Assembly (NCBI RefSeq): GCF_031583025.1
Contig: NZ_CP134062.1
Location: 2,356,001-2,420,000 of the forward strand
From: Mycobacterium sp. Z3061
GTDB lineage: Bacteria; Actinomycetota; Actinomycetes; Mycobacteriales; Mycobacteriaceae
Reading direction: 5' to 3'
DNA length: 64,000 nt
Position numbers and translations under genes: made by a program. Positions 5,640 to 41,683 of the stretch are shown here, piece by piece. The notes below the pieces were generated by a model. That model made no database searches, was not told where the DNA came from, and saw only the letters and a program-made list of their open reading frames with translations. Within the stretch, counting starts at the first letter, position 1. Every line of letters begins with the position of its first letter.

Positions 5640-6755
5640 TTAGAGCAATTCGATCAGCGGGATGGCCATCTCGGCCGGGGTCGCCGCACCGTGAAAGCCC
5701 ACCAGGCGCGCCGATTCCGGAGGTTCATGGCCGGTCGCCAGCACCGCCGACCCGCCGGTGCACACCACCACGACATCGCCGATCCGGGGTAGATGAGCGG
5801 GGCTGACCGGTCCGAACAGCCCCGCGGCGACGGCTTGGTCGCGGGTGTAGACGTCTGCGCGGCCGGCCAGGCGTTCTGACCAGGTGGCCACCACATCGGC
5901 GGTGGCGCCGGGCTCGGTGTGCAGATAGCGCACTCGCGGTTCGCCGGCGACCACCCTGATTCCGGCGGCCAGTAGCGGGTCGGCGTCCATGTCGATGCGT
6001 GCGTCCGCGGCGACATTCAGGCCGCCATGATCGGCGGTCACCAGCAGCGCCGCGTTGGCGGGCAGCGACTCGGTCAGTCGGGTCAGCAGCGCATCGACGC
6101 GCGACGCGGCCTCGTGCCACTCGGGTGACCCGACGCCGAATACGTGCGCCATGGTGTCCAGGTCTGCGGTGTAGCCGTAGACCAGTCCGGGTGCCGCGCG
6201 CAGTTCGTCGAGCAATCGCCCGGCGTAGTCGTCGTCGGCGTGCGTGGGTACGAAGAGGGCGCCGTGGTAGGCGGCTTCGGTCAGTCCACTGCCGATGAAC
6301 CATTCCGGCAACAGGGCGCGGGCCTTGACCCCGGCATGCGTCAGGCGGTCGAACCACGTTGGGAGAGGCTGCCATTCGTCGACCGGCGGTTCGTCGCGCC
6401 ACCTGATGTGGTTGAGCACTCGGTCGGTGCCCGGGATGTTGAGGGTGAAGCCGAGGATGCCGTGCTGCCCGGGCAGGGCGCCGGTGCCCAGTGACACCAG
6501 GCTCGTCGGGGTGGTGGACGGAAAGGTGCAGGTCAATTGCCGCAACCGTCCCGTGCCACCGCTCAGCACGGAAGCCAGCAGCGGAGCGTCGTGCACGAGA
6601 TCCGGCAGCAGGTGAAAGCCGAGCCCGTCGATGAGCACGAGCATGACCCGGTCGACGTCCCCGACCGACTCCACCAGGCCGAGCGTGTCTACCGCGCCGG
6701 ATACTCCGAGCAGGGCCGCCGCACTGGGCAGCACGTCGCAGATGGAACCGGGCAC
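5640..6755 (-). CDS. Alkaline-phosphatase-superfamily protein (type I phosphodiesterase/nucleotide pyrophosphatase-like)
   Basis: 371 residues, GTG start. Metal and nucleophile sites of the superfamily are visible: VLIDGLGFH near residue 40 (first metal Asp), CTFPSTTPTSLVSLGTG (Thr/Ser nucleophile region), DLDTMAHVFG (metal Asp and His), and VTADHGGLNV (Asp-His pair). It should hydrolyse a phosphate mono- or diester; the substrate is unknown. No signal peptide is obvious, so it is probably cytoplasmic. It starts 21 nt after the last hydrogenase-locus gene in the same direction and may be co-transcribed, but I know of no functional link. Confidence 0.8.
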   Translation of the reverse strand: MPGSICDVLPSAAALLGVSGAVDTLGLVESVGDVDRVMLVLIDGLGFHLLPDLVHDAPLLASVLSGGTGRLRQLTCTFPSTTPTSLVSLGTGALPGQHGILGFTLNIPGTDRVLNHIRWRDEPPVDEWQPLPTWFDRLTHAGVKARALLPEWFIGSGLTEAAYHGALFVPTHADDDYAGRLLDELRAAPGLVYGYTADLDTMAHVFGVGSPEWHEAASRVDALLTRLTESLPANAALLVTADHGGLNVAADARIDMDADPLLAAGIRVVAGEPRVRYLHTEPGATADVVATWSERLAGRADVYTRDQAVAAGLFGPVSPAHLPRIGDVVVVCTGGSAVLATGHEPPESARLVGFHGAATPAEMAIPLIELL

Positions 6756-6776
6756 GAGGGCAAGTTTGACATGGAA

Positions 6777-7508
6777 TCAGCTACCGAGACGATCGTTGGT
6801 CACCCGCAGCTGCCGGTCTGTGCTCTCGGCCAGCGCGCGCACCTGGTCGGGCTGCAGCCTCCCGCACAGCCGGCCCCAGTGCACGGCGACATCGTCGCCG
6901 GCGGCCACGTCCGGCACCGCGCAGTACCCGTCGGCCCATACGTCGAGGATCCGGGGGGCAGGTTCGGCCAACGCGAGTGTTCGGCCGTCCCACGCCAGCC
7001 GCCCGCACAGGACTTCGATCGCGTCATTGGAACGCGACAGGACGGTGCCCCAGGTGATCCGGCAACTGTCCAGCACATGCAACGGATGCTGATCCATGCC
7101 GCGTCCCAGGAAGCGCGTCCAGGGATACACACCGAAGACGTGGAAGCAGTGATTGCCGGCCGCCTCGTTCGCCAGGTCGGGGGTCAGATGCGACCAGTAC
7201 CGGCCGGCCTGGGGGCCGATGATGGCCAGTAACGCCTCGAAGAACCGGGTACCGGGCAGGTCGGCGCCGACACCGCCACCGAGCCAATACGCTTCGACCA
7301 GCCGATAGTCCAGCGGATCGGCGATACCGGTCAGCTGCGAGAGCACCCGCAGATAGGGCCAGGCCCCGGAGAAGCCGCGCGCCGCGCGCAGCACCTCATC
7401 GACCGCCCCGTCGCGCAGGGTGGCGCCCAGCGGGGGACCGCAATAGCCGAGTGCATTGGGGGCGTAGGCGTATCGGGCGAACATTTCGGCGCCGGTGGCG
7501 TCGGTCAC
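6777..7508 (-). CDS. Hydrogenase-locus conserved protein (DUF6390-like)
   Basis: 243 residues, GTG start overlapping the hypD stop (GTGA), so translation is coupled to hypD. The N-terminus ARYAYAPNALGYCGPP is a hallmark I associate with a family found only beside actinobacterial group 1h hydrogenases (DUF6390, from memory). His/Cys residues (GNHCFHVFGVYPW, HPLHVLDSCRI) could bind metal. No enzymatic motif is recognised. Its fixed place after hypD suggests a role in maturation or assembly of the hydrogenase; this is inferred from context only. Confidence 0.8.
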   Translation of the reverse strand: MTDATGAEMFARYAYAPNALGYCGPPLGATLRDGAVDEVLRAARGFSGAWPYLRVLSQLTGIADPLDYRLVEAYWLGGGVGADLPGTRFFEALLAIIGPQAGRYWSHLTPDLANEAAGNHCFHVFGVYPWTRFLGRGMDQHPLHVLDSCRITWGTVLSRSNDAIEVLCGRLAWDGRTLALAEPAPRILDVWADGYCAVPDVAAGDDVAVHWGRLCGRLQPDQVRALAESTDRQLRVTNDRLGS

Positions 7509-8641
7509 GTCTGGGCGGACCCCACCAGCTTGGCGGCGTCACGGTGCATGCGGCCGAAGTTGTAGTAGGCCGCACACGCCCCCTCGGGGGACACCATGCA
7601 GGTGCCGATCGGTGTCTCCGGAGTGCATGCGGTGCCGAAAACCTTGCACTCCCAGGGCTTGAGCACCCCCTTGAGCACTTCGCCGCACTGGCACGCCTTC
7701 GGGTCCGCGACCCGTACCCCGGGCATCGAGAAGCGTTGTTCGGCATCGAAATCCGCGAAGTCATCGTGCAGGCGCAGCGCGCTCTGCGAGATGAAACCGA
7801 GCCCGCGCCATTCGAAGTGCGGGCGCAACGCGAACACGGTGCCCATCAGTTTCAGTGCGGCGGGATTGCCGTGCTCCGGTACCACCCTCTTGTACTGGTT
7901 TTCCACCTCGCACCGGCCTTCGCGGATCTGCCGCAGCAGCATAGCGACCGACGCGAGGATGTCCAACGGCTCGAAACCCGCCACCACCAACGGCTTTCGG
8001 TAGACGTCCGGGACGAACCGGTAGGGCCGGTTGCCGACCACCGTCGACACATGGCCCGGGCCGATGAACCCGGACAGGCGCAGGTCCGGTGATTCCAGGA
8101 TCGCCTTGATCGGCGGCACGATCGTGACGTGGTTGCAGAACACGCTGAAGTTGGACAACCGCAGCTCGCGTGCGCGCACCAGCGTCACCGCGGTGGACGG
8201 AGCGGTGGTCTCGAAGCCGATGGCGAAGAACACCACCTGGCGGCCGGGGTTGTCGAGCGCGATCTTCAGCGCGTCCAAGGGGGAGTAGACGAACCGAACG
8301 TCGGCGCCTCGTGCTTTCGCGTCGAGCAGGCTGCCCGCCGAACCGGGTACCCGCATCATGTCGCCGAAGCAGGTGAAGATCACGCCGGGTTGGCCGGCCA
8401 GCCACATCGCGTCGTCGATGCGGCCCATCGGAATCACACAGACCGGGCAGCCCGGACCGTGCACCAGTTCGACGTTGTCGGGCAACAGGTGTTCGATGCC
8501 GTGCCGGTAGATGGTGTGGGTGTGCCCGCCGCACACTTCCATGAACTTGAAGTGCCCGGGACCGCTTCCGGCGAGATGCTCGATCGCGGTCAGCAGCGTG
8601 CGGGCCGCCGCGGGATCCCGGAATTCGTCGACGAATTTCAT
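7505..8641 (-). CDS. hypD: Hydrogenase maturation protein HypD
   Basis: 378 residues, typical length. HypD is the Fe-S scaffold on which, with HypC, the Fe(CN)2CO unit of the [NiFe] site is assembled. Visible motifs: CGGHTHTIYRHG, GPGCPVCVIPMGRID (redox/iron-binding Cys), FFAIGFETTAPST, CNHVTIVPP, and the C-terminal Cys cluster (CQCGEVLKG, CKVFGTACTPE, GTCMVSPEGAC) that binds a [4Fe-4S] cluster. It lies 8 nt after hypC and overlaps the next gene. Confidence 0.97.
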   Translation of the reverse strand: MKFVDEFRDPAAARTLLTAIEHLAGSGPGHFKFMEVCGGHTHTIYRHGIEHLLPDNVELVHGPGCPVCVIPMGRIDDAMWLAGQPGVIFTCFGDMMRVPGSAGSLLDAKARGADVRFVYSPLDALKIALDNPGRQVVFFAIGFETTAPSTAVTLVRARELRLSNFSVFCNHVTIVPPIKAILESPDLRLSGFIGPGHVSTVVGNRPYRFVPDVYRKPLVVAGFEPLDILASVAMLLRQIREGRCEVENQYKRVVPEHGNPAALKLMGTVFALRPHFEWRGLGFISQSALRLHDDFADFDAEQRFSMPGVRVADPKACQCGEVLKGVLKPWECKVFGTACTPETPIGTCMVSPEGACAAYYNFGRMHRDAAKLVGSAQT

Positions 8642-10714: not shown

Positions 10715-10716
10715 GA

Positions 10717-11427
10717 TCAGACCTCCGGTCCGGTGCGCGAGATCGCCGTCCCCGCATGCACCAGCACCAGGTCGCCGGCGGCGACCGGTCCGATCAGGGT
10801 GGTGAGCACCGTTTCGGTGCCCCGTGCCGTACGTATGGCGGCATGGTCGCGGTCCGTCGCGGCCAGCACCTCTCCGAGTCGTCCCTCGTCGCTGCAGGTG
10901 ACGCAAACATCCTCGGGGGCTTCTGTTTTCAACAGGCCGGGGTGTTCGAAACACACGTGCGTCAGTTCCCAGAGCAGGTGGTAGAACAACACGAAGCCGC
11001 CCGTCGCGGGCACCCGGGGATCGGGATCGTCCGACCACAGCACATGGTCGGCGGCGCCGGGTTCGGGCCGGGCGCCGCTGCCGATCCAGATCGTGGTGGC
11101 ACCCCAGGCCGGGCTGCGGCGCATCACCGATCGCACGTCGGGATCGTCGGCGCCGGCGACCGCGATCACCAGGTCGCCGGGGCGTACCGAGATTCGCACC
11201 AGGTCCACCAGGTCCGGCCCCGTGAGCGCGACCGCCGGCAGCGCCCGCTTGCCCACGATCACCGGATGCACGAATTCGACCGCGATGTGCCTGGCATGCG
11301 GTTCCCACGACGGCGCGATCGACCACATGGTGGCGCCCGCCGCGAACCGCCTGGCGACGGTGAAAGCGGCTCCCGCCAGGTCGGCGGCCAGATCGGCGCC
11401 GAGTTCGCGATCCATGGCGGTGCTCAT
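10717..11427 (-). CDS. SIS-like domain fused to a HypC-like domain
   Basis: 236 residues. Residues 1-165 look like a SIS/Rossmann module ([40 protein letters not shown]) resembling the neighbouring SIS protein but with a degenerate phosphate loop. Residues 173-236 ([31 protein letters not shown]) match the HypC barrel, with a CxxC instead of the N-terminal Met-Cys. A HypC domain with an internal CxxC cannot use the free N-terminal Cys mechanism unchanged. It may scaffold the SIS partner with HypD or HypE. The start overlaps the hypF stop (ATGA). Confidence 0.78.
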
Positions 11428-13730
11428 CGGTGTTCCTCCTCTCGCGCGATCAGCATGGCGACCGCGGCCTGGCCCAGCGCCAGCCCGCCGTCATTCGGCG
11501 GCACGAGGCGGTGGGTCAGGACCTCGAAATCTCTGTCGTGCAGGCGGTTCAGGCACTGTTGAAGTAACAGCACGTTCTGAAACACGCCACCGGTGAGGCC
11601 GACCAACCGGGTCGGCCCAGCCACCCGGCACACCAACTCGGCAACAGCATCGGCCAGTGCCCGGTGAAAGCCCGCGGCCAGCGCTGCCGGTGGCACGCCG
11701 TCGCGCAGCGCCGCCACCATCGCCCGCACCATCGGAGCCGGGTCGATCATCGCGTCGGCGCCGATGGCGAATTCCAGCGGTGCGGAGGCCGTCGCAGTCT
11801 GCGCCAGAGCCTCCAGTTCGACGGCGGCTTGTCCCTCGTAGTCGATCCGGTGCCGCACGCCCAACAGGGAGGCGACCGCGTCGAACAACCGGCCCATACT
11901 CGAGCACGGCACGCAAGCCGTGCCGGTGTCCAGAAGAGAACGCAGCAGCCGCAATTCATCGGTCGTGGCGGCGATGACGGGCGCCAGGTCGCCATCCCAG
12001 CCGACCCCGGCCTGCCGCAGCTGGGACAGGGCCATCCGCCACGGATTGCGCACCGCCGCGTCGCCGCCGGGCAGCGGCACCGGACGCAGCTGCCCGGCCC
12101 GCCGGAACCGGTGACTGTCGCGGCCCAGGGTGAGAATCTCCCCGCCCCAGACCGTGCCGTCGCATCCGTAGCCGGTGCCGTCGAAGGCCACGCCGACGAT
12201 CGGCTCACCGAGTCGCCCGTGCTCGGCGAGCAGCGAGACGACGTGTGCGTGGTGGTGCTGGACGAGGTCCAGTGGCCGGCCCTCCCGGTGGCGTTCGGCC
12301 CAGGCGCGGGTGTGATAGCCGGGGTGCAGATCGGCGGCCAGTCGTGCCGGGCGGCCGCGCATCTCGCTGAGTTGGCCCACCGCCTGCTCGAAGGCTCGCA
12401 GGGTTTCGTAGCGGGCCATGTCGCCGATGTGCCCGGACAGGTAGGCGCGCGAACCGTCGGTGAGGCAACAGGTGTTCTTCAATTCTCCGCCCACGGCCAG
12501 CACCGGGGGGCCGTCGATGCCGAGAGCGACGGGCAGCGGCGCATAGCCACGCGAACGCCGGATGGGTAGTTCGCCCCCCTTGCGCACGCGCACCACCGAG
12601 TCGTCGCAGGGCACGTGAATGGGCCGGTCGTGGTCGAGGACGGCGTCGCACAATTGCGGAAGGCGGTGCGCGGCATCCTCTTCGGTGAAGCAGATGGGCT
12701 CCTCGGACCGGTTGGCGCTGGTCATGACCAGGGCATCCGGCGGCCCGTCGAGCAGCAGATGATGAACGGGGGAGTACGGCAGCATCAGGCCGATCAACGG
12801 ATTGCCGGGCGCGACGGCCTCGGCCACCGGAGCGTCCGGCCGGCGGCGCAGCAACACGATCGGCCGCGCCGGACCGGTCAACACCGCGGCCTCGGTGTCG
12901 TCGACGAACGCATACCGCCGCGCCACCGCCAGGTCGCGCACCAGGACGGCAAAAGGTTTGCTGCCGCGTGACTTTCGGGCCCGTAGCCTGCGGACCGCCG
13001 ATTCGTCGTCGACCACACAGGCAAGGTGGTAGCCGCCGATACCCTTGACGGCGACCAGGGCTCCGTCAGCCAGCGCCAGCCGGGTTGCCGCCACGGCGCC
13101 GGGTCCGTGGGTGCGCCCGGCGGGTGAGTCGAACCACAACGAAGGTCCACAGTCCGGGCAGGCGATGGGCTGGGCGTGGAACCGCCGGTCGGTGGGGTCG
13201 TGGTACTCGGCGGCGCACCGTCGGCACATGGCGAAGCCCGACATGGTGGTGGCGGGGCGGTCGTAGGGCAGTGAGCGGATGATCGTGAAGCGCGGGCCGC
13301 AGTTGGTGCAGCTGATGAACGGGTGCCGGTGGCGGCGGTCGCGCGGATCGAACATCTCGGCCAGACAGTCGTCGCACACCGCGACATCGGGTGGGATCGG
13401 TGTTGCCGGGCCGCGCACGGCCTGGCTGTCCACAATGCGGAACGCGGGTGCGGGGCCGTCGCGGACTCCGATGTCGGTCACCGACACGGAACCGACCTGG
13501 GACAGCGGAGGCGCTTGATCACGCAACCGGCGAGCGAACTCGTCCACCCGAGGGGGCTCACCCTGCACTTCGAGAAACACCGCGCCCGAATCGTTTCCGA
13601 CGAAGCCTGTCAACCCCAGCTCGGTCGCGAGCCGGTGTACGAACGGGCGGAAGCCGACCCCCTGAACCACCCCGGTCACCGTGATGCGTCGCCGTACGTC
13701 CTCGGGCCGGGTCAGGGGGGCGGTGGTCAC
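11424..13730 (-). CDS. hypF: Carbamoyltransferase HypF
   Basis: 768 residues, usual length, GTG start. HypF converts carbamoyl phosphate to a carbamoyl-adenylate and transfers it to HypE for cyanide synthesis. Domains in order: acylphosphatase ([13 protein letters not shown], near residue 20), two zinc fingers (CDDCLAEMF...CTNCGPR and CRRCAAEYH...CPDCGPS, residues about 115-195), YrdC-like ([13 protein letters not shown]), and a C-terminal Kae1/TobZ-like domain ([35 protein letters not shown]). It lies 1 nt after hypC and overlaps the next start. Confidence 0.97.
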
Positions 13731-13731: not shown

Positions 13732-13983
13732 TCAGCTGCCCTCCGGATCGGGTCCCGAGCCCATCATCTGCAGGCCGGCCAGCGCCTGCGCGGCGCCGGC
13801 GCGGTCGGTCTTCTCCACGGCGAAGCCCATATGGATGATCACCCAGTCGCCGGGCTCGACGGTCTCCTCCGGCAGCATCCCGATGTTGACCTTGCGCCGG
13901 CGGCCGGTGACGTCGACCAGGGCCAGCTGCCCCTCGTAGCCCTCCAGCATGCCGATCACCTGGCCGGGAATCCCGAGACACAT
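13732..13983 (-). CDS. hypC: Hydrogenase maturation chaperone HypC (upstream copy)
   Basis: 83 residues, beginning [12 protein letters not shown] with the essential N-terminal Cys. The barrel motif [12 protein letters not shown] is intact. It shares one base with the stop of the endopeptidase gene (TGATG) and precedes hypF by 1 nt. It clearly differs in sequence from the second copy before hypD, so the two may deliver iron to different partners (HypD versus the large subunit) rather than being a recent duplicate. Confidence 0.95.
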
Positions 13984-14468
13984 CAGCACTCCTGCTCCGC
14001 CGGCGCCGAAGTCTGCAGCGCGGCAACGATTCTGTGCACCGCGCGGACCGCACGGGGCACCGCGGCGGCGACCGGTTCGCTCAGGCCCAGGTGTTCCTCC
14101 ACGCTGCCGGCCTCGCAGCCGACGATCACGGTGTAGGGCGGGTTGCCGCCCAACGCCCGCAGGCTGGCGAACACGGTCTGCGGGTCCATGCTGTGCGCGT
14201 CCAGACCCGTTGCACCGGAATCGCCGTCGTGGTCGGCCTGGAATACGTGCAACATGCCCGGGGTGCCGCGGCCGGGTATGGCGTCGACCAGGACGAGCGC
14301 GTCCCACGCGTCGAGCAGGTCGTAGGCCAGGTGCATGCCTCCGATGCCGTAGTCGACGACGCGCACGTCATCGTGCTGGATCTCGGTCAGTCGTGCCACC
14401 TCGGAGCCGAAGCCGTCGTCACCGAGGAAGATGTTGCCGATGCCGGCTACCAGGATTCGCGCTGTCAC
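13983..14468 (-). CDS. Hydrogenase maturation endopeptidase (HyaD/HybD type)
   Basis: 161 residues, GTG start chosen because ARILVAGIGNIFLGDDGFG follows at once, as in the family. This nickel-dependent aspartic-type protease removes the C-terminal tail of the large subunit after nickel insertion. Visible residues: the acidic Asp in GDDGFG, the second ligand Asp in VLVDAIPGRGTPG, and a His in GLDAHSMDP. The substrate should be HhyL, whose DPCLPCGVH motif is followed by a 22-residue tail. An in-frame GTG 12 nt upstream is an alternative start. Confidence 0.93.
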   Translation of the reverse strand: MTARILVAGIGNIFLGDDGFGSEVARLTEIQHDDVRVVDYGIGGMHLAYDLLDAWDALVLVDAIPGRGTPGMLHVFQADHDGDSGATGLDAHSMDPQTVFASLRALGGNPPYTVIVGCEAGSVEEHLGLSEPVAAAVPRAVRAVHRIVAALQTSAPAEQEC

Positions 14469-14482: not shown

Positions 14483-14602
14483 CTACATGCGCCGCAATCG
14501 TAGGTACCGCTTGGCATCCGGCAGCGAGGCCACACCCAGGCCCACCGCGGCCGCGACGACCAACGCGATCAGAGCGAGGAAAATCCAGCCTAAGACGTCC
14601 AT
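14483..14602 (-). CDS. 39-residue membrane peptide of the hydrogenase locus (DUF6893-like)
   Basis: A very short gene: ATG at 14602, TAG ending at 14483, 39 residues. One hydrophobic helix (about residues 4-27, WIFLALIALVVAAAVGLGV) is followed by the basic tail RYLRLRRM. It overlaps the 3' end of the 438-residue gene by 13 nt and precedes the endopeptidase gene. I recall a family of such small proteins beside group 1h hydrogenases. It has one membrane span and a positive cytoplasmic end, and the hydrogenase subunits have no membrane anchor of their own. It is therefore a candidate tether or quinone-side adaptor; that role is inferred. Confidence 0.8.
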   Translation of the reverse strand: MDVLGWIFLALIALVVAAAVGLGVASLPDAKRYLRLRRM

Positions 14603-20970: not shown

Positions 20971-21052
20971 ACTGCAGCTTTCCGGGGCCCGGGCTGCGGC
21001 CCCCTACGCCGCCGGAGTCGACCGTCGGCCCACTTGCGCGGCGCTATTCTCA

Positions 21053-21081
21053 GGCCTACTCGCGCTGTCCGGCAATGTCAA
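21053..21081 (-). promoter_or_regulatory. Candidate sigma-A promoter for hhyS
   Basis: On the minus strand a perfect -35 TTGACA (21081-21076) is followed after 17 nt by TAGGCC (21058-21053), which lacks the final T of a -10. The start site would fall about 75 nt before the hhyS ATG. The -35 is excellent and the -10 only fair. Confidence 0.38.
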
Positions 21082-21241
21082 CGGCTCGTTGCCGGAACGT
21101 CGTCGCACACACGTCAGGTCAGGGCCTGCCATGGCACCAAAATAGCTGTCGGGCTGCAAGATTCAGAACTGTCGCGATTGCTCGACGTAGAGGCTGCGGG
21201 CAAACTTATTGTCGTTCGCGTTATTTCTGTCATGCACATCG

Positions 21242-21266: not shown

Positions 21267-21288
21267 ATGCCGCCATCCTGAGTCACTT

Positions 21289-21624: not shown

Positions 21625-21660
21625 CGTCGCCAACATTAGCACTCCGAAAACCGCTGCGGG

Positions 21661-30534: not shown

Positions 30535-33500
30535 ATGTCCTTCCTGTTTGCAGCACCCGACGTATTGGCAGCGGCGGCGAACGACGTGTCGAGGATCGGT
30601 TCGGCCCTCGGCGCGGCGAACGCCCAGGCGGTCGTCCCGACGGTGAGATCTGCTGCCGGCGGCCGCTGACGAGGTCTCGGCGGCCATCGCGGCGCTGTTC
30701 GCCGACCACGCTGAGCAGTACCGCGCGGTGAGCGTCGAGGTGGAGCTGTTCCGGGAGCGGTTCGCCCAGCTCCTGGCGTCTGGTGGCACCACCTACGCCG
30801 TCGCGGAGGCCGCGAACGGAAACCTGCTGCAGCAGATCGAGCAGGCCACCCTGGACTTCATCAACGCCCCAGCGAGCTCCTCACGGGACGCGCGCTGATC
30901 GGCGACGGCGCCGACGGCGCGGCCAGCACCGGCGGCAGGGGAGGCGACGGCGGATGGTTGTGGGGCAGCGGCGGCAATGGTGGATCCGGGGCGGCCGGCG
31001 GTAATGGTGGGGCCGGCGGGTCAGCCGGGTTGTTCGGGCGGGGTGGAAACGGAGGGGCGGGCAGGGCGGCGGTCACCGCGGGCGGAGCCGGTGGCGCCGG
31101 CGGCGCTGGGGGCGCCAGTGGAATTCTCGGCGGCTTCAGCGGCGGGGCCGGTGGCGCCGGCGGGGCGGGCGCGGCCGGCGCGGCGGGCCAGGCCGGCGGT
31201 GCGGGCGGCGCGGGCGGGGCCGGCGGAGCCAACATGCAGGTGCTGTTCGGCCACGGCGGTGCCGGTGGCGTCGGGGGTACCGGAGGTGCGGGTGGAGCCG
31301 GCGTCACGGGGGACACGGGCAGTGGCGTCGCCGGCGGCGGGGGCAATGGTGGCATCGGCGGTGCCGGAGGTGCGGGCGGCGCCAACAATGCCCTGCTGTT
31401 CGGCTCGGCGGGCACCGGCGCCACCGGAGGCGTCGGCGGGGCCGGCGGCACCGGAGGATTCGGCGGAACGAGCTTCGGGCCGGGAGTCGCCGGTGGAAGC
31501 GGCGGCGACGGCGGCAGCGCGGGAGCCGGGTGGTGCCGGGGGAGCTGCGAACTGGTTCGGCAACGGCGGCGGCGCGGCGGGCGGCGCAGGGATCGGTGGC
31601 GTCGGCGGCCAGGGTGGCGCCGGTGGCGCCGGCGCTGCGAACCTCACGGCCGGAGCCACTGGATACGACGGCGGGGCCGGCGGACACGGCGGTCAGGGCG
31701 GCTCGGCCGGTGCGGGCGGCGTCAACGGCGCCGGCGGTGTGGGCGGTAGCGGCGGTGCCGGCGGCGTCGGAGGTGATGGCGCGACGGTGGCCGGCAGCGA
31801 TGGCGGTGTCGGTGGTGCCGGCGGCCGGGGCGGTGACGCGGGCCTGGGCGGCGCGGCCGGTGCCGGTGCGGGCGCTGCGGGCACCGCGGGTCACGCCGGT
31901 GACGGCGGTGCGGGCGGCCGGGGCGGTAAGGGCGGCGCGGGCGCTGACGGCGTCACCGCAGGCGGTGCGGGCTACGCCGGTGGCCACGGCGGCGTGGGGG
32001 GTCAGGGCGGCAATGCGCCGCCGGAGGGACCAACGGCGGCGGCGGTGCTGGGGGTGCCGGGCGGCAACGGCGGCGACGGCGCCACGGATCCGGACATCCA
32101 CCGACCGCCATGCGGGCAACGGCGGTCGCGGCGGAGACGGAGGTACCGGCGGTGACGGCGGGGCATCCGGCACCGGCGGACTGGGTGGTGTCGCGGGCGA
32201 CGGTGGCCGCGGGGGCGACGCTGGTGACGGTGCCGCCGGCGCCGACAGCGGCTACAACGGCATCGGTGGCAACGGCGGCGGCGGGGGCGCCGGCGGCGCC
32301 GGCGGCGCGGGTGCGGCCGCCACCTCGCCAGGCGGTGTCGCGGGCAGCGGCGGAGCCGGTGGGACCGGAGGTCAGGCCGGTGCCGGTGGCACCTCGAGCG
32401 GACTCGTCGGCGAAGGCGGCACCGGGGGCACAGGTGGGGACGGTGGCCGGGGCGGCGTCGGCGGCACCGGAGCCGACGGCGGACTCGGCGGTGCCGGCGG
32501 GATCGGCGGAGCCGCCGGCGGCGGGGGTGCCGGCGGCAGTGTCACCGCTGGTGAAGACGGTCTTGGTGGCTATGCCGGAAAGGGCGGCAGCGGCCGGAAC
32601 CGGTGGCCTGGGTGGTGACGGCGGAGCAGCTGGTGCGCACGGCACCGGCGCGCGCCGGGGGCGCAGGCGGTGGCGGCGGCAAGGCCGGTGTCGGCGGCAG
32701 CGGATTGGCCCCCGCAGGCGTGGCGGCGGACGGCGGCGACGGCGGGGCCGGCGGGGCCGGCGGCCAGGGTGGCGCGGCAGACGTAGGTGGCGTCAACGGC
32801 GCCGGCGGTAAGGGTGGCGCCGGCGCGGACGGCGCCGACGGAGGCACACCCGGCGGCACCGAGAACGGCTACGGCGGCAAGGGCGGCAACGGCGGCAACG
32901 GCGGCCTGGCGGGCGCCGGACTGGGTGCCGTGGGTACCGGCGGTGACGGCGGAGACGCGGGCGACGGTGGCAACGGCGCCGACGGCGGCAGCGCCCCCGC
33001 CGACTATTACGGCGCCAACGGCGGTTATGCCGGTGACGGCGGTGATGGCGGCGTCGGCGGCAACGCCGGCGGAACCACCGCCCACAACGGCAACGGCGGC
33101 AACGGCGGCGTCGGCGGGCGCGGCGGCAATGGCGCCAGGGGCATCCCCGACAACTGGCATCGGCGCCCGCAGCGGCGGTATGGGTGGCGTCGGCGGCTTC
33201 GGTGGGGACGGCGGCGCCGCCGGCACCGGGGGAGTCGGTGGACTCGCGGGCAACGGTGGTCAGGGTGGCATCGGTGGCGACGGCGGTGCCGGGTCGGCCG
33301 GCCTGGACGGTACCGGCCACAACGGTGGGGCCGGCGGCGACGCCGGCCGGGGCGGAAACGGTGGCAACGCAGGCGGCGCAACCGGCGCCAACGGCAGCGG
33401 AGGTCACGGTGGGGCCGGCGGCGCCGGAGGCCGCGGTGGGTCGGGTGTCTCGGTGAGCGGCACCGCCGGTACGGGCGGCGTGGGCGGTAACGGCGGTGTC

Positions 33501-36500
33501 GGCGGAGGCGGTGGTTGGGCCGGCACCGGCGGCAGCGGCGCATCCGCCGGTGCCGGCGGCAGTGGTGGCGTCGGCGGCGGCGGTGGCACCGGCGGCGACG
33601 GCGGCTACAACGGCGCCGCGGGCACTGGCGGAACGGCCGGGAAAGGCGGCGCCGGCGGTACCGGCGGAGCGGCGAACGCCTCGGGCAACCTCGCCGGAAC
33701 CGGCGGTGCCGGAGGGGCCGGCGGCGACGGTGGTGCGGGGGGCATCGCCAACGGATACAACGGTCAGGGCGGCATCGGCGGTAGGGGCAGCGCCGGTGGC
33801 GCCGGTGGCACCGGCAAGGCGCGGGCTGCACCCGGCGGAGTCGCCGGTGCCGGCGGCACCGGGGGCGCGGCGGGCAAAGGCGGGACCGGTGGGCAGTCCT
33901 CGTCGGTGCCGACGGCTTCAGCGGCTTCGGTGGCAAAGGCGGGGCTGGTGCGACCGGTGGCGTCGGAGGTATCGGCGGGGCGGCCGGTGCCGTTGGTAAT
34001 GGGTGGCACCGGCGGCACGGGTGGCGCCGGTGGCGGCGGTGGAACGGGCGGCGTCGCGCTCGGCCCGACCGGCGTGGCGGGCGGTGGCGGCATTCGCCGG
34101 CGCCGGTGGTACCGGCGGGCAGGGTGGCGCGGCCGCGGCAGGCGGCGTGAACAGGAACGGCGGCACCGGCGGTGCCGGCGGGTCGAGGGTGACGGCGGGG
34201 TTGCCGGGGCGTCCCAGAACGGCCGCTTCGGCGGCGACGGCGGCAACGGCGGCTGGGGCGGTGCGGCCGGTGCCGGCCAGGGCTCCAGCGGCGTGGCCGG
34301 CGACGGCGGCAAGGGCGGCGCCGGCGGCAATGCCAGAGCGGGCGGCGCCGCCGGCACCGGCAACAACGGCGGCAACGGCGCCAACGGTGGTCAGGGGGTG
34401 ACGGCGGCAACGCCGGCGGTCCGACCGGTCGCAACGGCGATGGCGGAGCGGGCGGCGCGGCAGGTGACGGCGGCAAGGGCGGCACCGGCACGACCGATAC
34501 GGGCAACGGGGCCGGTGCCGGTGGCCAGGGCGGCACCGGCGGTATCGGCGGCACCGGCGGCTCCGCCGGCACGGGTGGCAACGGCGGCACCGGTGGCGAG
34601 GCGGCGGCGTCGGCGGCAAGGGTGGTGGCGGCGGCACCGGTGCCGATGCGCTGGCCGGCAGCGGTCATGCCGGGGGCAGCGGAGGCAACGCCGGACGCGG
34701 TGGCGCCGGCGGATATTCCGGCGGAGCTGACTCGGCTGGCAGCAACGGCAACGGCGGCCAAGGCGGTGATGGCGGTACCGGCGGAACGGGAGGTACCGGC
34801 GCCGCGGGCGTCAGCAGTAGCGGCCAGGTCGGCGGCGCCGGCGGCAAGGGTGGCGATGCGGGCGTCGGCGGTGGCAGCGGTGGTGGCGGAACTGCCGGTC
34901 ACGCGGGCAATGCGGGCACCGGTGGCACCGGAGGTGCGGGCGGCACCGGAGGGGCCGGCGCTGATAACGCTGTGGCGGCGGGCACCGGATATGCAGGCGG
35001 CGCTGGAGGTGCCGGCGGTCAAGGCGGCTCGGGTGTCTCCGGGCGGCGCCAACGGTGCCGGTGGCCGGGGCGGTGACGGCGGCGCCGGCGGGCACGGCGG
35101 TGACGGCAAGGCAGGGGCCGCAACCGTCGGTCAGGCCGGCGGCGCCGGCGGTCGGGGAGGCGACGCCGGAGCCGGCGGGGCAGCGGGCACCGGCGCGGGT
35201 GTCGCGGCCCAGGCCGGTGCGGCGGGTACCGGAGGCATCGGTGGTGACGGTGGTGACGGTGGGGCCGGTGCTGCCAACAGCACCGCGGGCGGCGCCGGCA
35301 TGCCGGGGGCGCCGGGGCGCGGGCGGTCAAGGTGGTTCGGCCGGCTTGGGCGGCACGAACGGCGGCGGCGGCCTGGGTGGTGACGGTGGCCGCGGTGGTA
35401 CCGGTGCTGACGGCGCTGCGGGTGTGGGCACTGTCGGTCAGGACGGCGGTGCCGGCGGCAGAGGCGGTGACGCGGGTGCCGGCGGCGCGGCCGGCACCGG
35501 CGCGGTGCGGCGGGCAGTGCGGGTCGCGCGGGCAGCGGCGGTGCCGGTGGAGACGGTGCTGACGGTGGGTCCGGCGGCGCCAACACCGCCGCTGGCCAGG
35601 CCGGGTATGCCGGCGGCGCCGGGGGCGCGGGTGGTCAGGGCGGGTCGGCCGGCGTGGGCGGCACGAACGGCGGCGGCGGCCTGGGTGGTGACGGTGGCCG
35701 CGGTGGCGCCGGCGCTGCGGGCGCCGCGGGTGTGGGCACTGTCGGTCAGGACGGCGGCGCCGGTGGCAGAGGCGGTGACGCGGGTGCCGGCGGGGCGGCC
35801 GGAACCGGATCAGGCGCCACGGGCAGTGCGGGTCGCGCGGGTTCGGCGTGGTGCCGGTGGTCAGGGTGGCGATGGTGGGACCGGCGGCGCCAACACACTC
35901 GCGGGGCAGGCCGGGTATGCCGGCGGCACCGGCGGCGCGGGCGGTCACGGCGGCGCGGCGGGTGCGGGTGGCGTGAATGGTGACGGCGGCCGGGGCGGCA
36001 GCGGCGGGTACACCGAGGTGCGGGTGGCACGGGGGCCACCGTGACGGGAAGCGACGGAGGCGCCGGCGGTACCGGCGGTCGGGGCGGCGACGCGGGCGCC
36101 GGCGGCACGGCCGGCAGTGGCGCCGGCGCTTCGGGCGGCAAGGGCCTTTCCGGCGACGGTGGTCGGGGCGGGCGCGGCGGCGACGGTGGCGTTGCCGGAC
36201 GGGACGGCAACGGTAACGGATACACCGGCGGCGCGGGTGGGGTCGGCGGCGCGGGCGGCAACGCAGGCGTCGGCGGCAGCAACGGCAGCGGCGGGCCGGT
36301 GGCACCGGAGGTCAGGGCGGTGCCGGCGCCAATGGACGACCGGACACCGGCGTCGGTGCCGGCAATGGTGGCACCGGCGGGCGCGGCGGGAGTGGCGGTT
36401 CCGGCGGGGTGGCCGGCACCGGCGGCAGCGGCGGCGTCGCGGGGGCGGGTGGCGACGGCGGCCAAGGCGGGACCGGTGGCGTCGGCGGCACCAACAATCA

Positions 36501-39500
36501 CGTCCGCAGCACCGCCGGCATGGGCGGCGCCGGTGGCCAGGGTGGACAGGGCGCGGCCGACATCGGTGGCGGCGCCGGCAACGGTGGTGCCGGTGGTGCC
36601 GGTGGCGCCGGAGGGCTCGACGCGAGCGGCGGGGGCGCGGGTGGTACCGCAGGGGACGGAGGCGCCGGTGGAACGGGCGGCGCGGGCACGGTAGGCACGG
36701 CGCCGGGTACCGCGGGTTCGGTGGGCGGCCGTGGCGGCGCGGGCGGCGCCGGCGGCCAGGGTGGCAACGGGAGTGCCTTCAACGGTGACGGCGGGCAGGC
36801 GGCGCCGGTGGTCGAGGCGGCACCGGCGGTGCCGGTTACGCCGATGACGGCAGCAACGACGCCGGCGACGGCGGCGAGCGGGGCCGGTGGGACCGGCGGC
36901 ACGGCCGGAGCGGTCGGCGCCGGGGCCGGGTTGTCCGGCAACGCCGGCGCCGCCGGTACCGGGGGTCAGGGCGGTCAGGGCGGACAGGGCGGCGTGTCCG
37001 CCGCCGCTGGGACGGCCGGCGACGGCGGCGCAGGCGGAGCCGGAGGCGCGGGCGGAAGCGGTGCCGACGGTCTGACCGGCACCGGCAAGAACGGCACCGG
37101 CGGCCAGGGCGGGCAGGGCGGCCAGGGTGGCAACGCCGGCGGTTCGAGCGGTGCCAACGGCAGCGGTGGGGCCGGCGGCACAGGCGGCCAGGGCGGTGTC
37201 GGCGGCTCGGGTACCGCCGACACCGGCCTGGGCGGCGGTGACGGTGGTCGGGGCGGTGACGGCGGAAATGGCGGTATCGGCGGTGCGGTGGGCGCCGGAG
37301 GCACCGGCGGTACCGTCGGCGCCGCGGGAACCGGCGGTGGCGGAGGGCGCCGGCGGCAACGGTGCCGGCAATGTCACCGCCGGAATGGCCGGCGGCGATG
37401 GCGGCGCCGGCGGCCAGGGCGGGCAGGGTGCGACGGGCACCACCCCTGCGATCGGTGGCACGGGTGGCGCCGGCGGCACCGGCGGAGCCGACCTCAGCGG
37501 CAGCGGCACCGGCGGCACCGGCGGGGCCGGTGGAACCGGTGGCCAGGGCGGCACCGGAGCTGACAACAGCAGAAGTAATGGCTTCGGTTCCACTGGCGGC
37601 CAGGGCGGCGTCGGCGGCGCCGGCGGCCAGGGTGGAAACGCCGTCACCGGCGGCACCAACGGCGCCGGCGGCGCGGGTGGTCAGGGCGGAACGGGCGGCA
37701 CGGCCGGACAGGGCACCGCCGCAGACGGCAGCGGCAGGGGCGGTGTCGGTGGCGGCGGAGGCACCGGTGGTGTCGGCGGGACGGCGGGTACCGGTGCCGG
37801 TGCTGCCGGAGCAGCGGGCGTCGGCGGCCAAGGCGGTACCGGCGGGGTCGGTGGCACCGGCGAGTACAGCAGCGGCGCCGGCGGTCAGGGCGGTGCCGGC
37901 GGTCAGGGCGGCATCGACACCGGTCTCGGCGGCGGCACCGGCGGCAAGGGCGGTACCGGTGGCCAGGGCGGGAAAACTTGGGCAGCGGCGCGGGTGCGGG
38001 CGGCCAGGGCGGCACCGGAGGACAGGGTGGCGCCGACACCCGAGGTGGCGCCGGTACGGGCGGCCAGGGCGGTACCGGCGGAGCTGCCGGCGCCAACCCC
38101 AACGACTACGCCGGCGGTGGCGACGGCGGTGACGGCGGCACCGGTGGTCGCGGCGGCGACGGCGCAGTCGGGAGCAGGCACAACGGCGGCACCGGAGGAG
38201 CGGGTGGACAGGGCGGCACCGGTGCCAACGACTTCTCCGGAGGCGACGGCGGCGCCGGTGGCCAGGGCGGAACCGGCGGAAGCGCCGGGGATCACCTCAA
38301 CGGCGGCACCGGTGGTACCGGCGGCCAGGGCGGTGTCGGCGTGCAAGGCGGTGCAGCCGGCACCGGCGGTAAGGGCGGTACCGGCGGCGCCGGCGGCTTG
38401 AACGCCAGATTCGGTGACCCGGTCGGCAAGGGCGGCCAGGGCGGTCAGGGCGGCGCCGACACCGGTGCCGGAGCCGGCGCCGGTGGTGTCGGTGGCACCG
38501 GTGGCATCGGCGGGGCTGACGAGGTAGGCGGCGTGGCCGGCACCGGCGGTGCGGGTGGTCAGGGCGGCCAGGGCGGTGACGGCCTCTCGCTCAACGTCGG
38601 AAGCGGTGCCGGCACCGGAGGAAAGGGCGGCACCGGTGGTGCCGGGGGCCTCGGTGGTGCCGGGGGCGCGGGGTCGGCGGCGGCACCAACGGCGCCGGCG
38701 GCGAGGGCGGCACCGGTGGAACCGGCGGAACCGGCGGCAAGGGTGGCGGCCAGACCGGGGCGGGCGCCACGGCGGGCGCCGGTGGCCAAGCGGTACCGGG
38801 GGAGCCGCGGGTGCCGGCGGCGCGGCTGGCAGCGGCGGCGGGTCGGCCAGAGCCGCGGGCGACGGTGGCGACGGTGGCGCGGGCGGCGCCGGGGGTCAGG
38901 GCGGCCAGGGTCGCCTGGGGGCGAACGGCGGGGCCGGCGGTGCGGGTGGTGTTGGCGCCACGGGTGGCACAGCGACCGGCACGGGCCACGTCGCGGGTAA
39001 CGGCGGCGCGGGCGGTGTCGGCGGTGTCGGCGGCAACGCCGATTGGGACTCCATCGCCGGCGCCGGCGGCACCGGCGGCACCGGCGGGTCCGGCGGGGCC
39101 GCGACCGGTGGCGCCAACGGTGGCGTCGGCGGCAAAGGCGGGACCGGCGGCGTCGGAGGTGTCGGCGGCACCGGAAATGCGCAGTTCCGTCCGGGTGAGA
39201 CCGGTGGCACCGGCGGAGCCGGGGGTACCGGTGGCCAGGGCGCAGCAATGCGCCGCCGGCGGCGCCAACGGAGCCGGCGGCGCCGGGGGTACCGGTGGCC
39301 AGGGCGGTCAGGGCGGCGCCGGCTTCGCCGACGACCGACAGAACACCGCCGGAAATGGCGGGGCCGGCGGCACCGGCGGCGTCGGCGGCACTGGTGGCGC
39401 GGCCGGCAGCGGCACGGGTGCGGTGGCCAGCGCGGCGGGTACCGGTGGTCAGGGCGGCCAGGGCGGAACCGGCGGTCGCACCATCTACGCCGGCAACAGC

Positions 39501-39905
39501 GCCGGTACGGGCGGCGTGGGCGGCCAGGGTGGCGTCGGCGGTCAGGGCGCCGACGGCGCGGTCGGTGGCGGCACCGGCTACAACGGTGGACTCGGCGGTG
39601 CCGGCGGCGTCGGCGGTACCGGCGGCTCCAACAGCACGGGCATCGGGGGCACCGGTGGTCACGGCGGCAAGGGTGGCACTGGCGGCGACGCCGGTGACGG
39701 CACCGGCGGACAGGCCGGCGGCACCGGCGGCACGGGTGGTAGCGGCGGTGCGGGCGGCACCGGTGGCGTCGGATCCAGCGGTAAGTCCGGTAACGCGGGC
39801 GGCGGCGGCGTCGTCGGCAACGTGGGAACCGGTCCGTCCGGCTCGACCGGCGGCACCGGTGGAACGGGTGGAACCTCAGGCAGCGGCGGCGCCGGGTCTA
39901 GTTAG
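30535..39905 (+). CDS. Giant PE_PGRS protein, interrupted by many apparent frameshifts
   Basis: About 9.4 kb, roughly 3,100 codons. ATG 30535 starts [19 protein letters not shown], a typical PE domain that continues in another frame ([39 protein letters not shown]) to about 30870, followed by PGRS repeats (GGAGGxGG) to the TAG at 39903-39905. No second PE domain occurs, so I treat it as one gene. The Gly-rich frame changes near 30645, 30873, 31532, 32095, 32596, 32650, 33157, 33895, 33998, 34090, 34185 and 34400, with more downstream. Most changes lie in G/C runs, suggesting base-calling errors. The longest clean stretches are 36409-37340, 37978-38680 and 39270-39905. PE_PGRS proteins are ESX-5-exported surface proteins. 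It is not the positional equivalent of PE_PGRS48. Confidence 0.75.
35250..35870. repeat. Segmental repeat of about 308 nt within the PGRS region
   Basis: A Gly-rich block containing [17 protein letters not shown] and then [20 protein letters not shown] recurs after 308 nt (identical word at 35354 and 35662). The expected in-frame period is 309, so the missing base probably marks another indel. It indicates growth of the gene by unequal crossing-over. Confidence 0.7.
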
Positions 39906-41017
39906 CCCACGCGCTCCGTCGCCGGGGCCCACTTCTCTTCGATCCGTCCGTAACGCCACACCAGCAGCGCGACGGCCCAGGTCAGAACGAACATCCCGAC
40001 GACGACGAAGCCCACCGTGTTCAGGTCCAGGCCGGCGATCCAGTCCCACAGGCCACCGCGCCAGCCGAGACGACCGGCGAACAGCCCCAGCAACTCCACG
40101 GTGCCGATCAGCAGCGCCACCGCCACCGACAAACCGGTGACGGTGAGGTTGTAGTAGATCTTGCGTACCGGGTTGGAGAACGCCCAGCCGTAGGCGAAGT
40201 TCATGAACGAGCCGTCGATTGTGTCCAGCAGACACATGCCGGCGGTGAACAGCACCGGTAGGCACAGGATGGCGTACCAGGGCAGCCCGGACGCCGCGCT
40301 GGTGCCCGCCAGCACCAACAGCGCGATCTCGGTGGCGGTGTCGAAGCCCAGGCCGAACAGCAGTCCGAGCGGATACATGTGCCAGGACTTGGTGATCGAC
40401 TTGGTGAGGCGTCCCAGGAATCGGTTGAGCAGGCCGCGATTGTCCAGTTGCTGTTCGAGCTCCGCCTCATTGAACTCGCCGTGGCGCAGCCCCCGGAACA
40501 CCCGCACGATGCCGATCAGCACGACGATGTTCATCAGGGCGATCAAGTACAGGAACCCGCCCGAGACGCTGGTTCCGATCAGCCCGGTATAGAAGTGCAG
40601 CCGCGACGAGTCGTCCTCGACGGGGCCGACGACGGCGCGCAACCCGGCTGCCAGGAGCAGCGCGAGGGTGAACACCACCGAAGAGTGGCCCAGGGAGAAG
40701 AAGAATCCGACGGCCAGGGGACGCTGGCCCTCGCTCATCAGCTTGCGGGTGGTGTTGTCGATGGCGGCGATGTGGTCGGCGTCGAACGCGTGCCGCAGCC
40801 CCAGGGTGTAGGCGGTGAGCCCGATGCCCACGCCGAAAGCCTTGTGGCCCAGACTCAGATGCGCCGGCTCCACCACCAGGATCAGGGTCAGCCATCCCAC
40901 CAGGTGCAGCGCCGCGATCACCGCCAGCATGACTCCCAGCCGACCCCACTCGGCCGGGGACAGCGCCCCCCGCAGTCGCGACCACGGTGACTGCCGGTCG
41001 AGCCGGTCGCTGGCCAT
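39902..41017 (-). CDS. nicT: Nickel permease NicT (NiCoT family)
   Basis: 371 residues; ATG at 41017 follows a strong GGGGAGG Shine-Dalgarno. The NiCoT signature [14 protein letters not shown] (His76-x4-Asp81-His82) in the second membrane helix is intact, as is [13 protein letters not shown]. About eight membrane segments are visible. It imports Ni2+ (some members also Co2+), the metal needed by the hydrogenase. Counterpart of Rv2856. Its TAA (39904-39902) overlaps the TAG of PE_PGRS on the opposite strand. The divergent Fur-family gene and the box over its promoter suggest nickel-dependent repression. Confidence 0.95.
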
Positions 41018-41079: not shown

Positions 41080-41090
41080 CTGACTCGCAG
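41074..41090. promoter_or_regulatory. Candidate Nur (nickel) box overlapping the nicT -35
   Basis: TTGCAA-CTGAC-TCGCAG. The Streptomyces Nur operator is, from memory, TTGCaa-N5-ttGCAA. The first half matches fully and the second at four of six positions, with the exact 5-nt spacing. Its overlap with the -35 would let nickel-bound Nur block nicT transcription. Confidence 0.5.
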
Positions 41091-41152
41091 GAGCGGGACG
41101 CGCCGGTGGAGCCCCACTGGCAATCCCGCGCCGGCGGCGCAACACTGAACTG

Positions 41153-41683
41153 GTGACGACAGAACCGGTGGGCCTGGACCCGGCGGCCGCCGAGCGGATC
41201 GGCGAACTGCTGCGCTCGCGCGGACTGCGGCGGATGGCCTCGCGGATCCAGGTTTTGGCGATCCTGGAACCGGTCAACGGGCACCTGTCGGTGGCCGAGA
41301 TCCAGCACCGGTTGCCGGCGTGCCTGGCGCCCGGAGACCAGCCTCCCGACCTCGCGACCATCTACCGCACCGTCACCACCCTGGTCGATCAGGGCGTGCT
41401 GCACGCATTGACCCTCGACGGCGGCGTCACGACCTACGGCATGGCCACCGCGCCGCACCACCACGCCGTGTGCACCCAGTGCGGAGCGATCATCGAGGTG
41501 CCCGCCCGCAAGCTCAGTTCGGCGCTCGAACATGCGATGGCGGGTAGTTCGTTCGCGCTGTCCGAGCGGGCCGGGCTGACGCTGCACGGCCTGTGCCCGG
41601 CCTGCCAGGAAAGCGTGCAGGACTATCTCGAGGGGGAGAGCGACTCCACCGATCCACGACCGCCCAAGGGACGCCGCGGCTGA
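41153..41683 (+). CDS. Fur-family metalloregulator, probable nickel sensor Nur
   Basis: 176 residues, GTG start. N-terminal winged helix with the recognition region LATIYRTVTTLVDQGVLH. C-terminal sensing domain with His102-103-104 followed by CTQC (Cys107, Cys110) and a second zinc pair CPAC (Cys148, Cys151). The Fur family includes Fe, Zn, Mn and Ni sensors that sequence alone separates poorly. Divergence from nicT and the Nur-like box point to nickel. M. tuberculosis has only FurA and FurB (Zur), neither at this locus. The end is 1 nt from the convergent mtr stop. Confidence 0.85.
   Translation: MTTEPVGLDPAAAERIGELLRSRGLRRMASRIQVLAILEPVNGHLSVAEIQHRLPACLAPGDQPPDLATIYRTVTTLVDQGVLHALTLDGGVTTYGMATAPHHHAVCTQCGAIIEVPARKLSSALEHAMAGSSFALSERAGLTLHGLCPACQESVQDYLEGESDSTDPRPPKGRRG

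What the first reader, a model, noticed from the sequence alone, without database searches (positions are those of the whole stretch)
5640..41683. Complete group 1h hydrogenase plus nickel module at the place where M. tuberculosis keeps only nicT
The flanks (Rv2860c-Rv2857c and nicT-mtr order) are conserved, yet about 16 hydrogenase genes lie between the SDR gene and nicT. As I remember the tuberculosis genome, nicT stands there without hydrogenase. The simplest reading is loss of the H2-scavenging locus in the tuberculosis lineage, leaving the nickel permease as a relic. Insertion here is the alternative.
Basis: partly seen in the sequence, partly recalled or inferred. Interest (0 to 1): 0.75.

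Follow-up and report, generated by a model that had tools for sequence, protein, structure and literature searches.

The report
Hydrogen-scavenging gene cluster repeatedly lost
This mycobacterium carries an old, inherited set of genes for living on traces of hydrogen gas; many related species, some of them close kin of the tuberculosis bacillus, appear to have deleted that set separately while mostly keeping the nickel importer beside it.

Summary
A group 1h [NiFe] hydrogenase cluster (15 genes, 6777-21636) lies between the glnA4-GATase-ALDH-SDR block and nicT-mtr. Two corrections: about 18 kb of PPE and PE_PGRS-like sequence separates it from nicT, and it lacks hypB, which 48 of 52 comparable loci have. 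The genome has hypA and hypB beside a second hyp cluster.

Loss, not insertion, is supported. In a chosen set of 100 slow-grower loci read from mtr, hhy follows mtr in 52 of the 62 genomes with an HhyL match; hhy genes broadly follow the species tree (Mantel r 0.81). M. spongiae, close kin of M. tuberculosis, has the cluster here; M. riyadhense has an empty site. But loss was repeated: at least 16 changes on the tree, 12 forced by well-supported branches, and relics imply seven or eight different breakages.

"nicT as relic" is not supported: nicT is uninterrupted in 21 of 22 hhy-minus loci and dN/dS stays 0.09-0.20, also in genomes where no urease or PF00374 hydrogenase was found. The M. tuberculosis genome was not examined. 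The enzyme is known; the repeated loss and orphan nickel genes are the interesting part.

The parts
321..4567 (+). Left flank: glnA4-like glutamine synthetase (321-1688), GATase/Peptidase_C26 (1669-2430), aldehyde dehydrogenase (2427-3794), SDR (3791-4567); counterparts of Rv2860c-Rv2857c by gene order (Rv numbers recalled)
   Evidence: Pfam. Of 100 mtr-anchored stretches 32 hold pde plus SDR and/or GATase, 11 of these with GATase but no SDR; 38 hold pde alone, many of them ending there
4572..5522 (-). PPE gene between the SDR gene and pde
   Evidence: Pfam PF00823; PMC1660551 (passage) places an M. avium PPE gene between Rv2856 and Rv2857c
5640..6755 (-). type I phosphodiesterase/nucleotide pyrophosphatase family gene (pde); stays in many loci that lost the hydrogenase genes
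   Evidence: Pfam
6777..7508 (-). DUF6390 protein, end of the hydrogenase cluster
   Evidence: Pfam PF19927
7505..8641 (-). hypD
   Evidence: TIGR00075
8650..8922 (-). hypC
   Evidence: Pfam PF01455
8943..10055 (-). hypE
   Evidence: TIGR02124
10052..11326 (-). SIS-domain (GmhA-like) protein between hypF and hypE, also in many slow-grower loci
11424..13730 (-). hypF
   Evidence: TIGR00143
13732..13983 (-). second HypC/HupF-like chaperone
   Evidence: Pfam PF01455 at residues 109-177 of ORF 13732-14307; start inferred
13983..14468 (-). hydrogenase maturation endopeptidase
   Evidence: TIGR00072; start inferred
14590..15906 (-). conserved unknown protein next to the structural genes
   Evidence: no Pfam hit; homologues at the same place in other loci
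15903..16559 (-). DUF6084 protein
   Evidence: Pfam PF19562; start inferred
16556..17179 (-). DUF5947 protein
   Evidence: Pfam PF19372; start inferred
17176..18045 (-). hhyE, NifU/Rieske-type iron-sulphur protein (presumed electron carrier)
   Evidence: Pfam; role from PMC6883350 passages
18049..19848 (-). hhyL, group 1h large subunit; RICGICG 77-83, DPCLPCGVH 569-577, 22-residue tail beyond His577
19915..20970 (-). hhyS, group 1h small subunit
20971..21288 (-). gap where most relatives examined have hypB; no hypB here
21289..21636 (-). hypA
   Evidence: Pfam PF01155
21661..30060 (-). PPE-MPTR tract with a repeat at a spacing of about 3.89 kb
   Evidence: Pfam PF00823 and PF01469; repeats; limits approximate
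30900..39900 (+). PE_PGRS-like tract, glycine-rich frame changes many times; named by eye
   Evidence: limits approximate
39902..41017 (-). nicT, NiCoT-family nickel/cobalt permease
   Evidence: NF052500; Pfam PF03824
41685..43061 (-). mtr, mycothione reductase; anchor used for the comparisons
   Evidence: TIGR03452

Best explanation
The interval holds a vertically inherited group 1h [NiFe] hydrogenase cluster that sat between mtr-nicT and the SDR block in an ancestor of the main slow-grower clade. HhyS-HhyL should oxidise trace H2 and pass electrons through HhyE to the respiratory chain; HypA and HypC-F with the endopeptidase build the [NiFe] centre, with nickel brought in by NicT (inferred from the families). 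In the window's species HypB probably comes from the second hyp cluster (inferred: a hypB was found there), and PPE and PE_PGRS-like sequence separates nicT from hypA. Many slow-grower lineages, among them relatives of M. tuberculosis, lost the cluster independently, by deletions with different end points where remains can be read, usually leaving nicT and pde. NicT is still selected for afterwards, so it probably does another job (another nickel or cobalt protein). Shown here: gene content, shared order, broad tree agreement, relics, purifying selection on nicT. Inferred: enzyme function, electron path, HypB supply, and that M. tuberculosis followed the same path.
For: Of 100 chosen mtr-anchored loci (38 of the 47 genomes without and 62 of the 95 with an HhyL match), hhy follows mtr in 52, with nicT between in 44; hypA stands between nicT and hhyS in all 44 rows. 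HhyL match in 95 of 142 genomes with a slow-grower-type mtr, one only a fragment. In the hhy tree of 45 genomes a branch with support 100/99 parts 36 slow-grower-type from 9 fast-grower-type genomes (types judged by mtr identity). Distances agree with SecA+mtr over 36 genomes: Mantel r 0.81, 0 of 2000 permutations as high. At least 16 changes of presence on the 70-genome tree, 12 forced by starred branches; the 22 lost genomes of the inner group as one clade rejected, p-AU 0.0009. Remains at the site: G029, G105, G282, G326 (frameshift), G365 and G394, G089, the G007/G108/G211 group (hypB), G203 (hypA 44-64 next to DUF6390 175-243). M. spongiae intact (G026, contig 5,581,157 bp, the published length; PMC11361433 section 7); M. 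riyadhense empty (G064, contig 6,155,284 bp; PMC11237670 table passage). nicT uninterrupted over at least 90% of its length in 21 of 22 hhy-minus loci; dN/dS 0.09-0.20 in six pairs that both lack hhy.
Against: M. tuberculosis itself was not read. Deep-branching genomes without hhy (perhaps the terrae group: G174, G181, G069, G022, G073, G309, G348, G372) have mtr near SDR with no nicT, pde or fragments, so arrival at the site after that split is possible. In other clades hhy lies elsewhere (G186, G060, G320, G083, G251, G094, also G143) or pde comes first (G071, G117, G380, G319): the module has moved. In 12 of 20 hhy-minus, nicT-bearing sites no fragment was found, and one of the 8 others (G250) is weak and one (G059) runs off its contig. 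Only 18 of 33 splits are shared by the two trees; seven starred conflicts involve G244 and G071/G117. The species tree has two genes, one of them next to the locus; the AU groups were named after seeing the tree. G368 has a stop at residue 323 of nicT. Some dN/dS pairs (G023-G064, G007-G236) may not share one loss, so part of their divergence may predate it.
Confidence: 0.88

Rival explanations
1. Insertion: the hydrogenase cluster entered this site recently by horizontal transfer in the window's species or a few lineages, and the tuberculosis arrangement is the older one.
For: Sites without nicT, pde or hhy exist in deep-branching genomes; the module sits at other places in some clades; trees conflict for G244 and G071/G117.
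Against: Same site in 52 of 62 fetched genomes with an HhyL match, broadly congruent gene tree, remains in hhy-minus genomes, G+C of most of the block close to the flanks, hhyS-hhyL somewhat lower at about 64%.
Confidence: 0.05
2. One loss in the tuberculosis-associated lineage explains the empty sites there, and losses elsewhere are few.
For: The hhy-minus genomes G029, G105, G357, G064 and G023 cannot be excluded as one clade by the two-gene tree (p-AU 0.099; with G113 added 0.17).
Against: In the best tree M. spongiae (G026, intact) groups with other intact genomes, and G064/G023 with intact G113, on starred branches. G029 and G105 keep different remains and G064 none. All 22 inner-group losses as one clade are rejected.
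Confidence: 0.07
3. nicT in hhy-minus species is a relic on the way out.
For: G105 has only two nicT fragments, G203 and G282 have no slow-grower-type nicT, and G368 has a stop at residue 323: nicT does get lost in some lineages.
Against: 21 of 22 hhy-minus loci have it uninterrupted and dN/dS is 0.09-0.20. PMC10961391 (passage) describes M. [quoted passage not shown] Presence of nicT does not follow urease (9 of 24 with, 6 of 19 without nicT; Fisher p 0.76), so urease alone does not explain it either.
Confidence: 0.12

Closest known systems
Group 1h (actinobacterial-type) [NiFe] hydrogenase: Hhy of M. smegmatis and HofGK (5aa5)
   Same: Large and small subunit by far closest to 5aa5, HhyE-type NifU/Rieske protein next to hhyL, endopeptidase, hyp genes. 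PMC6883350 (passages) describes the M. smegmatis operon and the need for HhyE.
   Different: hypB missing from the cluster; PPE and PE_PGRS-like sequence between nicT and hypA; activity not measured; direct comparison with M. smegmatis sequences not run.
hhy locus of M. spongiae FSD4b-SM
   Same: PMC11361433 (passage) reports a group 1h complex orthologous to M. smegmatis hhy. The held genome of that length (G026) has it at the same mtr-nicT site, with hypB (L140).
   Different: M. spongiae keeps hypB and has nicT 119 bases from hypA; the passages seen do not discuss the site or its loss elsewhere.
M. tuberculosis nicT (Rv2856) - Rv2857c neighbourhood
   Same: By PMC1660551 (passage) nicT and Rv2857c are neighbours, as nicT, pde and SDR are in M. 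riyadhense, M. simulans and M. asiaticum (L092, L096, L094).

Membership tests
Group 1h [NiFe] hydrogenase | Catalytic subunits most similar to the solved group 1h enzyme 5aa5 | tested here: met
   1088 against 166 bits (large), 555 against 147 bits (small). That 5aa5 is group 1h is recalled.
Group 1h [NiFe] hydrogenase | Two Cys pairs for the [NiFe] centre and a cleavable C-terminal tail | tested here: met
   RICGICG 77-83 and DPCLPCGVH 569-577; the solved chain ends at the residue aligned to His577, 22 residues follow; cleavage itself inferred
Group 1h [NiFe] hydrogenase | HhyE-type iron-sulphur protein in the structural operon | tested here: met
   NifU and Rieske domain matches, 17176-18045
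Group 1h [NiFe] hydrogenase | Placement in the HydDB classification tree | not tested
   no HydDB reference set was used
Group 1h [NiFe] hydrogenase | Uptake of H2 at atmospheric level in air | not testable with these tools
   needs a gas assay
Complete hypABCDEF maturation set at one locus | all six hyp genes present | tested here: not met
   hypB absent from the window; hypB homologue elsewhere in the genome
NicT (NiCoT) permease | Match above curated cut-off of NF052500 | tested here: met
   606 bits against 450
NicT (NiCoT) permease | Transport of nickel rather than cobalt | not testable with these tools
   metal preference needs an uptake assay; PMC2667541 passages say it varies within the family

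The most novel reading that the evidence does not exclude
Slow-growing mycobacteria that lost the hydrogenase still use nickel (or cobalt) through an enzyme not yet recognised. Of 24 hhy-minus, nicT-bearing genomes, 12 gave no urease match (TIGR01792) and no PF00374 hydrogenase match; in 8 of these 12 nicT was tested in pairs and has dN/dS 0.09-0.20. An M. asiaticum lineage (G007, G108, G211) also keeps an uninterrupted hypB, a nickel-insertion GTPase, right beside nicT with dN/dS 0.05-0.12. This orphan nickel pair would feed an unknown metalloprotein. Group 4 hydrogenases and other nickel or cobalt enzymes were not searched.
Probability: 0.25. Interest if true: 0.7.

Novelty: new member of a known kind. 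Interest (0 to 1): 0.45.

Why it matters
Atmospheric H2 oxidation helps starving aerobic bacteria to survive. A fixed site with intact clusters, partial relics and clean deletions in close relatives turns 'when and how often did slow growers give up H2 scavenging' into a question that can be mapped base by base, including along the line that led to the tubercle bacillus. It also suggests that nicT beside mtr should not be read as leftover: something else seems to need it.

Tried and rejected
Recent insertion: rejected on synteny, tree agreement and relics. Single loss: rejected for the inner slow growers as a whole, left open among five tuberculosis-associated and neighbouring genomes. nicT kept for urease alone: no association. 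hypB in the window or in the 40 kb around the second large subunit: none; found in the next stretch. G105 (4,504,020 bp) and G029 (5,092,988 bp) have sizes near M. shinjukuense and M. lacus (4,489,120 and 5,077,830 bp in PMC11237670), but the lengths differ, so no name is claimed. PMC8356964 and PMC13098282 had no occurrence of the terms sought.

Choices that shape counts: the 100 loci were picked by hand (38 of 47 genomes without an HhyL match; G010, G078, G101, G139, G226, G321, G332, G363 and G377 not fetched; 62 of 95 with one). Of the 80 genomes, ten are not in the 70-genome tree, one for want of a match and nine because no SecA stretch was fetched: G010, G059, G101, G139, G150, G292, G332, G351, G360, G377. 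'Present' on that tree means anywhere in the genome. Lists of present, absent and relic genomes were typed by hand. Some drafts are incomplete (G306 79%, G360 80%) and were kept.


Full report
What is there. The window is G000:C1:2356001-2420000 of a 6.79 Mb mycobacterial genome. On the left lies a + strand block of glutamine synthetase, GATase, aldehyde dehydrogenase and SDR, then, on the - strand, a PPE gene and a phosphodiesterase. From 6777 to 21636 follow DUF6390, hypD, hypC, hypE, a SIS-domain protein, hypF, a second HypC-like protein, an endopeptidase, a conserved unknown, DUF6084, DUF5947, hhyE, hhyL, hhyS and hypA. The large and small subunits are by far closest to the solved enzyme 5aa5; the large subunit has both Cys motifs and 22 residues beyond the His where the solved chain ends, as expected for an enzyme that needs the endopeptidase. 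After hypA come about 18 kb of PPE-MPTR and PE_PGRS-like sequence, then nicT and mtr.

What is missing. Of nine hypA-hhyS gaps read, seven hold a hypB-like ORF; the window and G228 do not. Over the loci searched, 48 of the 52 with hhy beside mtr have hypB above 60% identity; G120, G228, G045 and G382 do not, nor do the window, G006 and G047.

Distribution. HhyL was found in 111 of 198 genus genomes. Of 396 genus genomes 142 have a slow-grower-type mtr (E <= 1e-236); 95 of these have an HhyL match, one only a 112-residue fragment (47 of 70, 48 of 72). I read 100 of the 142 from mtr towards the SDR block: 38 of the 47 without a match and 62 of the 95 with one, chosen by hand. hhy follows mtr in 52 of these 62: in 44 with nicT between, in 8 without. 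The other ten are a fragment (G282), contig ends (G047, G188) or hhy elsewhere (G094, G143, G186, G060, G320, G083, G251). In ten intact loci nicT ends 81-128 bases from hypA; a few others have a longer gap there (for example G015, G158, G161, G341).

Loss at this site. Two close relatives of M. tuberculosis can be named by exact chromosome length: M. spongiae (G026, 5,581,157 bp, PMC11361433 section 7) is intact, and M. riyadhense (G064, 6,155,284 bp, PMC11237670 table passage) has mtr, nicT, pde and SDR with nothing of the cluster found. M. simulans and the M. asiaticum group lack the cluster too, the latter apart from hypB in three of four genomes. A relaxed search of 37 mtr-SDR intervals found hyp or hhy remains in 8 of 20 hhy-minus, nicT-bearing sites (one of them, G250, weak; another, G059, runs off its contig), in 0 of 7 where hhy lies elsewhere and in 0 of 10 where both are missing. 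Further remains: G029 and G105 keep hypA, B, C, D, E and F but no hhyL; G282 keeps the last 134 residues of hhyL; G326 has a frameshifted hhyL. In G203, of the window's own clade, hypA residues 44-64 stand next to DUF6390 residues 175-243, with about 23 kb between mtr and this scar that reads, by eye, as PE_PGRS and PPE genes. I count seven or eight different breakages (G029 and G105 may share a first step).

Trees. On a SecA+mtr tree of 70 genomes (36 present anywhere in the genome, 28 absent, 6 relic) presence needs at least 16 changes, 12 forced by starred branches. Holding the 22 lost genomes of the inner group together is rejected (p-AU 0.0009); holding five tuberculosis-associated or neighbouring ones together is not (0.099, and 0.17 with G113); groups were chosen after seeing the tree. 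A six-gene hhy tree of 45 genomes has a branch of support 100/99 between slow- and fast-grower-type genomes. Over the 36 shared genomes it has 18 of 33 splits in common with the species tree; the seven starred conflicts involve G244 and the G071/G117 pair; distances correlate at r 0.81, 0 of 2000 permutations as high. This reads as mainly vertical descent with repeated loss.

How it likely works. By homology HhyS-HhyL oxidise trace H2 and HhyE hands on the electrons; in M. smegmatis HhyE is needed for normal H2 uptake (PMC6883350, passages). NicT supplies nickel, HypA with HypB, probably from the second cluster, insert it, HypC-F make the Fe(CN)2CO part (established roles, recalled), and the endopeptidase trims HhyL. 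None of this was measured for the window's species.

nicT after the loss. nicT is uninterrupted over at least 90% of its length in 21 of 22 hhy-minus loci; G368 has a stop at residue 323. In six pairs of genomes that both lack hhy its dN/dS is 0.09-0.20 (G007-G211, G007-G108, G007-G236, G116-G227, G365-G394, G023-G064), much like pairs that keep hhy (0.05-0.18, one at 0.39). Not every pair need share one loss. Of 43 hhy-minus genomes tested for urease, 9 of 24 with nicT and 6 of 19 without it have one (Fisher p 0.76). Twelve of the 24 have neither a urease nor a PF00374 match (one, G306, is 79% complete; one is G368). G007, G108 and G211 keep hypB beside nicT, uninterrupted, dN/dS 0.05-0.12. 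Group 4 hydrogenases and other nickel or cobalt proteins were not searched, so an ordinary user may exist. G029, G105 and G282, whose hyp genes look intact in the matches (the SIS gene has stops in G105 and G282), have other hydrogenase-like matches, which may be why.

Fast growers. G020, G124 and G119 carry a diverged nicT convergent with mtr, with hhyL 88-107 kb away, and two named contigs, OTB74 and M. llatzerense, have a nicT beside hhy (L067, L083). A link between nicT and hydrogenase genes may thus be older than the slow-grower site.

Literature. Library searches listed one paper that reports hhy in a close relative of M. tuberculosis, PMC11361433 (abstract, outline, section 7 and passages seen); no listed title or abstract start described repeated loss at the mtr-nicT site. 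Most subscription papers are not in the library. PMC6883350, PMC1660551, PMC10961391, PMC12542625, PMC2667541, PMC3443423, PMC13143225 and PMC11237670 were seen as passages only.

Verdict. A known enzyme system at a conserved place; its loss is real and repeated, and nicT does not behave like a relic.

Noticed in passing
window 30900-39900: PE_PGRS-like tract in which the glycine-rich frame switches many times without clear gene ends; sequencing indels in 80% G+C DNA or a decayed gene would both fit.
   Followed up: partly
window 21661-29900: PPE-MPTR tract with 300-base stretches 95-100% identical at a spacing of about 3.89 kb: a tandem duplication or an assembly artefact.
   Followed up: partly
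G000:C1:4338173-4339603 and 3253814-3254950: Two further [NiFe] hydrogenase large-subunit matches in the same genome, the first with hyp genes about 15 kb away; no urease alpha subunit match in this genome.
   Followed up: partly
L134 (G045) and L138 (G382): hhy structural genes present but hypB, hypF, SIS, hypE, hypD and the usual hypC not found at the locus.
   Followed up: no
L179 (G244): hhy genes group with G143 against the species tree; the genome is marked 6% contaminated, so exchange or a mixed assembly.
   Followed up: no
L044: A contig labelled MAG Bifidobacterium breve carries a NicT 75% identical to the window's; probably a mis-binned contig.
   Followed up: no
G047:C63 and G047:C24: Two mtr copies, 93% and 91% identical to the window's.
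   Followed up: no
L284 and L114 (G203): About 23 kb of PE_PGRS/PPE-like sequence (by eye) between mtr and the hypA scar, much as in the window; absent between nicT and hypA in G120 and G228 of the same clade.
   Followed up: partly
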